A DNA stretch of 60,000 nt from Membranipora membranacea (Eukaryota > Bryozoa > Gymnolaemata > Cheilostomatida > Membraniporidae), in the NCBI GenBank assembly GCA_914767715.1, contig OU612068.1, positions 7,070,001-7,130,000 of the forward strand, read 5' to 3'. Under the pieces are notes generated by a model, which had not been told where the DNA came from, ran no database searches, and worked only from the letters and a program-made list of their open reading frames with translations. The translations under genes and the position numbers were made by a program. This document shows, in pieces, positions 34,601 to 37,600 of the stretch (position 1 is its first letter; each line of letters opens with the position of its first letter).

Positions 34601-37600
34601 GTCTGCTGTTGCGGCACTTTCACTAGTAAACCGTTGTCCGTCTGATGGGAGAGCAACTCCAAATACAGACAAATTTGATCTGACTCGACATGATGCTAGA
34701 CAATAAATATCCCAATTGTAAAAAGCAGGTTCAAACTCAGGATGTTACTGATCGAAGCTTGTGACGACAGGCCACCATGTTGTGCAGTCTCCTCTATGTT
34801 GTTTTATTATCTAACAATGTTGTTTAGTATGCATGTGGTGTTGTGCTTTTTATTCAGGCTCTACAGTCATCGTTTCAAATTTTATCTGGAGAGAATTGGT
34901 CTGATCCAATGTATGACCTAATGAGACTAAGTAAAGAATGGGTGGCAGTACCGATAGCCTGTTATTTTGTCACTGTACACCTCTTTATGACCGCTGTAAG
35001 TAGCTGGTGGTAGGACATTGGGAGCTTGCATTGAAATCTGTTAGGAATAAGATATCCCTGAGCATGCAAACAAGTGATTTAATACAGGGAAATCAAATTT
35101 TGACTAATTTGGTTGAGGTTTTTCCCAAGAAAGGAAAGATAATTTTTGATAAAACCACCTGATCTTTACGTGGAGATTACTCTGCTCTGTTTTTTAAAAA
35201 GTATCTGAGCAAAATCAGTTCGATGAAGAATTCCATACCTGAGCAGTTTGTTTGGTGACAAGGCTCATTTGGGATCCCATCTAGATTTCGATGCAAGCTC
35301 TTTGGCTCTGGGAGAAGTATAGTTAAGGGATCCAAACTGAGAGTCTAAATCCCTTAGCTAGGAGAGGTAGCATCTTTGCTACCTAGTTATATTATCATAC
35401 ATAAAAAATTTAGCTGAGATCCATTTTTAAAACCGGCTACCAACCAGCTCACCTAACCAATAATATTCTTCTTTAATCCTGGTGGGCATGTTTAACCGCA
35501 TGTTAAGTCTGACTTGCCTGACAAGCTGTGTTAACCATCTTCCCAAGAAGCCTGGACTACAGTCTACAAAGTTTTTTGACAATGAGTAGATAGCTATGTT
35601 GTCCAGGTACACATTGGAGAGGTGGTCAGCAATGTTACAGGTGTAGGGTTTTGGTATTAGCCAAGAAGCACAGGCATGTCTGCATGCTTGGTGTAAGTTC
35701 TGACTTTGTGTTTAGACCCACTCATCCGCTGTATCTTTTCCTCCTTCCCACTGGGTTTGACCTTACATGACCTCTGTAACTTGACTAACCGTTAAACTAT
35801 TTCTAGATTCTGCCTGTATAGGCAGTGCATAGCCTAGCTGTAACCAAAAGCAGCTTGCTATTACCGATACAAAGAATGCTGCCTGGTGTCTCGCTGTTAT
35901 GATTGACAGGATGAGATTTTAGATCACAATTTGGGAAAACTTGACAAGTGACAAGGTGGATATAGATATTTATTTACATTCATTTGGGCAACGCTCTCAA
36001 TTGAAAATGACCTCAACAGATCATTCAACCATCTCATCCTCTCACACATAACTTTGGATTAGACATCTAGAGCGATGGCTGGTCGACTGCTTGCTTTATT
36101 GGTTACGTCTGCATTTAGGCGTTCATGTCCATGTTTCAAATCCTACTGAAGAAAGGCTGGACAGATATAATGTACGGTACGATGAGTCGGGCAGAGACTC
36201 ATGCTGCCGCTGCTATGATGGCTGTATACTTTCTAACCTATCACCTGTTAGTCACTGTGGTAAGTGTGAGTGTTGTCCCCCCACCACCACCGTATACAAT
36301 TAACATAACATACTTATCTCCCCATAGAATAATGCTAATCAATAAAATCTGTTAAATTCAGATGTATTTGTCTCAGATAGTTCTCTTTTTTGACTACAAC
36401 TGATGTGCTGACTTAGCTATGTTTAGTATATGAGAAGTATTAGGGTTCAAAAGTTTAGACAATGTTGCTTTAATAATCATCATAAAATACAGGCTTTGTT
36501 TCGACACCCTGCTTAGTAGCTAAAACTGTTTGGACTATTTTGATGTAGTCACCCAGTATGAATACTTGTGCCAAAATGTGTATCAGTGTTATGTACCATG
36601 AAACCCTGCAGTGTATATGCAAATCTAGGTAGATCCTATTGCTATGGCAGCTGCCATTAAGGAGTATCATCCAATGCAACTGTACTTTTGTCATAATCAC
36701 AATTACCCGTTTATTTAGTCTCGATATTGTTTTGTGATGTGGTCGTGGTAAGTAGTCATTAGAAATTACCCACTCTCGTCATTTGAGCGCCCCTTAGCTT
36801 TCAGTCGTCAAGATTGAAGTTGCGTGCCCCTGTAACATAGTAGCTCAACAAATACTACTAGTACGCTTGTAGGATATACAATTATGAATAATGATAACAC
36901 TTTGCTATCATGCTGGTCTAAAAATGGGTGCAACGGGAAAAGGGTTATCTGCATTGGAATATTTTACTAACTCATGTCGAAAGCAGATCAGGCTACACAT
37001 AGTAGTCCAAGACGGCTTATGTTCTGCATCATACCGAGCTTGAATCAAAGAATTCATTGCTTGTCATTGTTCCCTCCCCATATCCCTTTCCCTGGACCTC
37101 ATTAGTTTAGTGCTAGTTTAGGTGCTCAACCACTTCACATGTCGCTGTTATTGGCATTCCATTGCCAAGGACCGCCCCTCCTCTGGATGATGATGGAATG
37201 CCGCTTACAGCGGCCATGTCGAGATCTGAGTGCTCAATCTAGTTTAGTGCTGGCTAGCTGGCTTTACGGGCATCACTAGGCTTTATTATTAGAGCTTTAC
37301 TAACTCATAACTACTTTTCCCTTACACTCTGGTGGTTTGGCTCTGCTTTACAGCTCCAGTTTCTGCTTAGCCTATCTATACAATCTTTCATCATTTCTTG
37401 CCTACTGCACCGATCCTGGAATAATAATCACAACTGGCCAAGTAAAAGAATAATTGTTTTGAACGTAACCATTTAATCATATTTCCACCAGGTGTGAACC
37501 ATGTTTGCACATTTTTTTGGACACTGTAGATTTATGAATTTCTATTTTGTGTGAGGTCCTTTATCACTTGTAACTACAGAAATACCGAATTGCAAGGTGA

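What the first reader, a model, noticed from the sequence alone, without database searches (positions are those of the whole stretch)
34858..36259. NALCN pore switch: tandem alternative exons give EEEE or EKEE selectivity filters
Seen: two exons, 34858-34995 and 36119-36259, both phase 0 on both sides, encode the same domain II P-loop/S6 segment, with GENW in the first and KKGW in the second. Domains I, III and IV contribute Glu (codons 31876-31878, 44797-44799, 47561-47563). Known: alternative domain II pore exons giving calcium-channel-like EEEE or sodium-channel-like EKEE NALCN pores have been described in protostomes such as pond snail. Inference: this animal can set leak-channel ion selectivity by splicing one exon.
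Basis: partly seen in the sequence, partly recalled or inferred. Interest (0 to 1): 0.92.

Follow-up and report, generated by a model that had tools for sequence, protein, structure and literature searches.

The report
Spliced pore switch in sodium-leak channel
An invertebrate's sodium-leak channel gene carries two interchangeable exons for one quarter of its pore, a switch already described in snails and other animals, but here the calcium-like version has a pore residue that a published review says animal channels of this kind never have.

Summary
The window carries a NALCN gene on the + strand (28604-51109): 33 constitutive coding exons plus two tandem domain II pore exons, A (34858-34995, SGENW) and B (36119-36259, LKKGW). 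Either one gives an open frame, 1778 or 1779 aa. Domains I, III and IV supply Glu, so the forms are EEEE and EKEE. No further copy was found in the window. This is the exon 15a/15b switch published for flatworms, molluscs, annelids, echinoderms and hemichordates (PMC3557258), in the same order (E upstream, K downstream), so the reading is right in kind but not new. Selectivity was not shown here, and the snail isoforms could not be told apart in HEK cells. What is unusual is exon A. It is the most diverged of seven exons compared with human (39% identity; B 52%; the others 60-84%). It has Asn at HFS+1, where a 2023 review states every animal NALCN has Gly in domains I-III (PMC10120453). With the domain IV Asp this gives a D/N pair like that described for CaV channels, domains swapped. 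Transcripts, species identity and related exons could not be examined. New variant of a known kind.

The parts
28604..51109 (+). NALCN gene model, 35 coding exons (33 constitutive, 2 alternative), first ATG to stop
   Evidence: orthology. Boundaries were chosen by hand to satisfy GT-AG and phase. The first ATG and last exon rest on the frame alone.
33783..33929 (+). Constitutive exon before the switch (domain II S5)
34858..34995 (+). Alternative exon A (15a-like): domain II P-loop and proximal S6, filter SGENW, Glu in the ring
34891..34896 (+). Exon A ring Glu (GAG) and HFS+1 Asn (AAT)
34996..36118 (+). Intron between A and B, 1123 nt, faced by A's weak donor and B's weak acceptor
36119..36259 (+). 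Alternative exon B (15b-like): domain II P-loop and proximal S6, filter LKKGW, Lys in the ring
36149..36157 (+). Exon B HFS-1 Lys (AAG), ring Lys (AAA), HFS+1 Gly (GGC)
37625..37699 (+). Constitutive exon after the switch (end of domain II S6)
31876..31881 (+). Domain I ring Glu and HFS+1 Gly
44797..44802 (+). Domain III ring Glu and HFS+1 Gly
47561..47566 (+). Domain IV Glu and HFS+1 Asp (the beacon aspartate)

Best explanation
A NALCN gene makes two leak-channel forms by using one of two tandem exons for the domain II P-loop and the start of S6. Exon B puts Lys into the ring (EKEE, sodium-channel-like). Exon A puts Glu there (EEEE, calcium-channel-like) and also Asn just above the ring, across from the domain IV Asp. 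Shown here: the gene, both exons, their splice sites, open frames and homology. Inferred: that each transcript takes one exon, that choice differs between tissues as in Lymnaea, and that the swap changes Na/Ca permeation or Ca block. How exclusion is enforced is unknown; the likeliest route is regulated splicing helped by weak sites facing each other across the A-B intron.
For: Clean gene model; NALCN orthology; A-B homology and codon-position pattern; Glu in the other three domains and no further pore copy in the window; published precedent with the same position and order (PMC3557258). Splice sites scored with matrices from 32 constitutive sites of each kind: A's donor outscores 2 of 32 and B's acceptor 6 of 32, while A's acceptor outscores 20 of 32 and B's donor 29 of 32; this pattern was noticed after the fact.
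Against: No transcripts. All four exon combinations stay in frame. A is strongly diverged, and the EEEE exon is known to be lost in some species. Two of three intron pairings exceeded 12 of 12 shuffles but only by 1-2 kcal, the third did not, and UGCAUG motifs were not enriched, so no mechanism of exclusion was found. Selectivity differences are unproven even in snail.
Confidence: 0.85

Rival explanations
1. Exon A is an ageing relic, little used or unused; the animal in effect has only the EKEE channel, as reported for leech and schistosomes.
For: A is the most diverged of the seven exons compared with human (18 of 46 identical), has a weak donor, and loss of the EEEE exon is on record.
Against: No stop, intact splice dinucleotides, P-loop Trp kept, first and second codon positions agree with B at 25 and 28 of 46 while the third is at 14, and the filter is still acidic.
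Confidence: 0.1
2. Both exons are used, but the main difference lies in the P2/S6 stretch (gating, Ca block, assembly or sensing) and not in Na/Ca selectivity.
For: A and B differ at 26 of 46 aligned positions, not only in the ring; selectivity differences could not be shown for snail isoforms, and its authors raise a sensor role.
Against: The ring residue is the shared difference across the animal groups reported, and ring Lys is a recognised determinant of Na preference.
Confidence: 0.2
3. The Asn at HFS+1 is a sequencing or assembly error.
For: Only one sequence of this locus was available.
Against: Any Gly codon is at least two base changes from AAT, and other positions of A (such as Gly at HFS-1) also differ from the human exon, with no frameshift or stop.
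Confidence: 0.02

Closest known systems
NALCN exon 15a/15b (EEEE/EKEE), Senatore et al. 2013, PMC3557258
   Same: Same gene, same domain II stretch (pore helices, filter, proximal S6), two tandem exons, E upstream and K downstream
   Different: Exon A here has Asn, not Gly, at HFS+1 and is strongly diverged; B has a second Lys at HFS-1. Whether other species share this could not be checked because the figures are not held.
NALCN exon 31a/31b (EEEE/EEKE) of myriapods and chelicerates, PMC3557258
   Same: Tandem pore exons toggling one ring residue
   Different: Domain III, not II; no second domain III pore exon was found in this window
CaV1-3 filters with the Asp/Asn beacon pair, PMC10120453
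   Same: All-acidic ring with an Asp and an Asn at HFS+1 of domains II and IV
   Different: Domains swapped here (Asn in II, Asp in IV), and only in the exon A isoform of a NALCN gene
Invertebrate CaV3 exon 12a/12b, described in PMC4436565 (passages)
   Same: Domain II alternative exons altering Na/Ca preference
   Different: Acts through the extracellular loop before the filter, not the filter itself

Membership tests
NALCN channel | Sequence closest to NALCN among four-domain channels | tested here: met
   In the PDB search with the domain II piece the five NALCN sequences lead (E about 1e-56 with A, 1e-64 with B), CaV next at 3e-18 and 3e-27; the longer pieces match NALCN at 2e-145 and 2e-295
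NALCN exon 15a/15b switch | Two tandem exons spanning domain II P-loop to proximal S6, same phase | tested here: met
NALCN exon 15a/15b switch | Upstream exon with Glu, downstream exon with Lys; Glu in the other three domains | tested here: met
NALCN exon 15a/15b switch | B groups with other 15b exons (15b monophyly) | not testable with these tools
   Protein database off; scans found no relatives; figures not held
NALCN exon 15a/15b switch | Mutually exclusive use in transcripts | not testable with these tools
   No RNA data
Rule for animal NALCN filters (PMC10120453) | Gly at HFS+1 in domains I-III, Asp in domain IV | tested here: not met
   With exon A domain II has Asn; domains I and III have Gly and domain IV Asp, and exon B has Gly. 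This is a published generalisation, not what defines NALCN.
NALCN exon 31a/31b switch | Second domain III pore exon with Lys | tested here: not met
   The domain III pore peptide finds only its own exon at E 1 or better; no hit below E 0.15 in the exon-masked window

The most novel reading that the evidence does not exclude
The E exon of this animal is not a plain NALCN filter but a remodelled, CaV-mimicking one. Splicing toggles two layers at once, the ring (E or K) and the beacon above it (Asn or Gly), so the EEEE form gains an Asp/Asn pair across domains IV and II like that of CaV channels with the domains swapped. It breaks the published rule that animal NALCN always has Gly there. The review's own logic gives opposite predictions (a D/N pair favours Ca; a neutral non-Gly beacon favours Na), so this natural pair of isoforms could decide between them.
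Probability: 0.4. Interest if true: 0.6.

Novelty: new variant of a known kind. Interest (0 to 1): 0.4.

Why it matters
The switch itself is known, so the gain is a further example with a full gene model. If exon A is used, it is a natural counterexample to a published rule about NALCN filters and a ready-made test of what the residue above the selectivity ring does. It also shows the E and K exons diverging well beyond the one residue usually discussed.

Tried and rejected
Further copies: the human domain II exon, exons A and B and a domain III pore peptide were searched against the exon-masked window; the only hit at E 1 or better was one of E 0.51 that holds no filter. The 35 exon peptides against the masked window gave no hit below E 0.060. 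The first table was cut in the output, and in it the domain I query was read in a wrong frame and is ignored; the second table has it in frame. Copies elsewhere in the genome could not be sought.

Frame-based exclusion was rejected: skip, A, B and A+B are all open and in frame. Steric exclusion was judged unlikely because the A-B intron is 1123 nt (inference). U12 sites: none at the three donors checked. Distant branch points were not suggested: AG-free stretches before A, B and the next exon are 30, 46 and 23 nt.

Competing RNA pairing between three introns, 12 shuffles each: best duplex -37.7 (intron before A with A-B intron; best shuffle -36.7) and -38.4 kcal/mol (intron before A with intron after B; best shuffle -36.3); the third pair (-36.7) was reached or beaten, at the printed rounding, by 5 of 12. 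Judged inconclusive. UGCAUG: 2 seen against 1.6 expected, though one (34830) lies just before exon A.

Relatives: scans of viral contigs and prokaryote genomes gave 5, 4 and 41 pattern matches, none a relative, as expected for an animal gene. The animal was not identified. Literature searches (open-licence papers only): I saw no report of Asn at the domain II beacon of NALCN in the listings or in the passages read; figures and supplements were not seen and most listed papers were not opened.

Full report
What is there. The window (60 kb, GC 37.7%) carries a NALCN gene on the + strand. I built a model of 35 coding exons, 33 constitutive and two alternative, picking boundaries by hand to satisfy GT-AG and phase. 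Phases agree throughout and the frame is open from ATG 28604 to the stop at 51107-51109: 1778 aa with exon A, 1779 with exon B. The first ATG and the last exon rest on the frame alone; a search for four short human-like C-terminal words (recalled) up to position 54000 found none. Against solved structures the best matches are NALCN, at E 2e-145 for the N-terminal 555 residues and 2e-295 for an 837-residue C-terminal piece. Pfam finds an ion-transport domain in domain II with either exon (127.3 bits with A, 135.1 with B).

The two exons. A (34858-34995) and B (36119-36259) lie between the exon for S5 (33783-33929) and that for the end of S6 (37625-37699). They encode 46 and 47 residues of P-loop and proximal S6. 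They are homologous: E 1e-7 to 2e-7 in the window, and their alignment score of 84 was reached by 0 of 20000 shuffles. First, second and third codon positions agree at 25, 28 and 14 of 46 codons. With the Glu codons of domains I, III and IV the rings are EEEE with A and EKEE with B. No third domain II pore exon and no second domain III pore exon was found in the window.

What is known. Senatore et al. 2013 (PMC3557258; abstract, Results parts 1-2 of 3 and Discussion read) describe this arrangement: exon 15a with Glu upstream and 15b with Lys downstream, in flatworms, molluscs, annelids, echinoderms and hemichordates. In Lymnaea the EKEE form is about twice as abundant as EEEE in brain, while EEEE is higher in heart and muscle. 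A 2015 review (PMC4436565, section 11 and passages) and a 2018 review (PMC6259924, passages) repeat it. The 2013 authors could not separate the currents of the two forms from background in HEK-293T.

What is unusual. Exon A is the odd one. Identity to the human protein is 18 of 46 for A, 24 of 46 for B, 28 of 47 for the domain I pore exon, 49 of 72 for domain III, 50 of 74 for domain IV, 28 of 44 for the preceding exon and 21 of 25 for the following one (these seven exons were compared, of 35). Where exactly one of A and B matches human, it is B at 8 sites and A at 2, although human has Glu, as A does. The filter of A reads SGENW against TQEGW in human. Its HFS+1 residue is Asn (AAT 34894-34896). 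Spafford 2023 (PMC10120453, sections 13 and 14 and passages read) states that every animal NALCN has Gly at HFS+1 except the domain IV Asp, and that CaV1-3 channels have an Asp and an Asn facing each other across domains II and IV. With exon A this channel has Asn in domain II and Asp in domain IV, that pair with the domains swapped. The same review holds that a neutral non-glycine beacon favours sodium and that replacing the beacon Asp by Asn in CaV gives sodium permeability, so the direction of the effect cannot be told from sequence. Exon B keeps Gly at HFS+1 but has Lys at both HFS-1 and HFS, and Leu at HFS-2. A structural paper describes the last residue of the P1 helix as conserved Thr/Ser/Cys (PMC7672056, passages); that this is HFS-2 is my mapping. 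I could not see whether other species' 15a or 15b exons share these features: figures are not held and no animal sequences beyond PDB entries could be reached.

How exclusion might work. The reading frame does not prevent both or neither exon being used. The A-B intron is 1123 nt, so simple crowding is unlikely, and no U12 site was seen at the three donors checked. Scored against matrices from 32 constitutive sites of each kind, the two sites facing each other across the A-B intron are weak (A's donor above 2 of 32, B's acceptor above 6 of 32), while the outward-facing ones are fair or strong (A's acceptor above 20 of 32, B's donor above 29 of 32). This would disfavour joining A to B; the pattern was noticed after the fact. 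Intron pairing and UGCAUG motifs gave no clear signal.

Is exon A alive? Against: its divergence, its weak donor, and the known tendency of the EEEE exon to be lost. For: intact splice dinucleotides, no stop, the P-loop Trp, first and second codon positions held while third positions are near saturation, and a filter that is still acidic. I put a functional exon A at roughly nine in ten, but only transcripts can settle it.

Verdict. Observation confirmed; interpretation right in kind and already published; the departure worth following is the remodelled E exon. Limits: one unidentified species, no transcripts, no related exons, no recordings.

Noticed in passing
11929-13425 (+): Open frame of 498 aa with an F-box (Pfam F-box-like, E 1e-12).
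   Followed up: no
14076-14381 (-): Open frame matching the C-terminal end of the importin-11-like repeat model (Pfam PF25758, E 5e-10).
   Followed up: no
53937-54305 (+): Open frame downstream of the NALCN gene matching the acyl-CoA dehydrogenase N-terminal domain (Pfam PF02771, E 1e-12); further frames to about 56.5 kb look like the rest of that gene by eye.
   Followed up: no
57179-57793 (-): Open frame with the OTU1 C-terminal zinc finger (Pfam, E 1e-15) and a weak OTU protease match.
   Followed up: no
34858-34923 against 47528-47593: The filter half of exon A resembles the domain IV filter of the same gene (10 of 22 residues, E 0.004 and 0.007): SGENW beside TGEDW.
   Followed up: partly
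36119-36259: The K exon B is closer to the single human exon (which has Glu) than the E exon A is. Either A has run ahead, or the vertebrate exon is not a simple descendant of the 15a type.
   Followed up: partly
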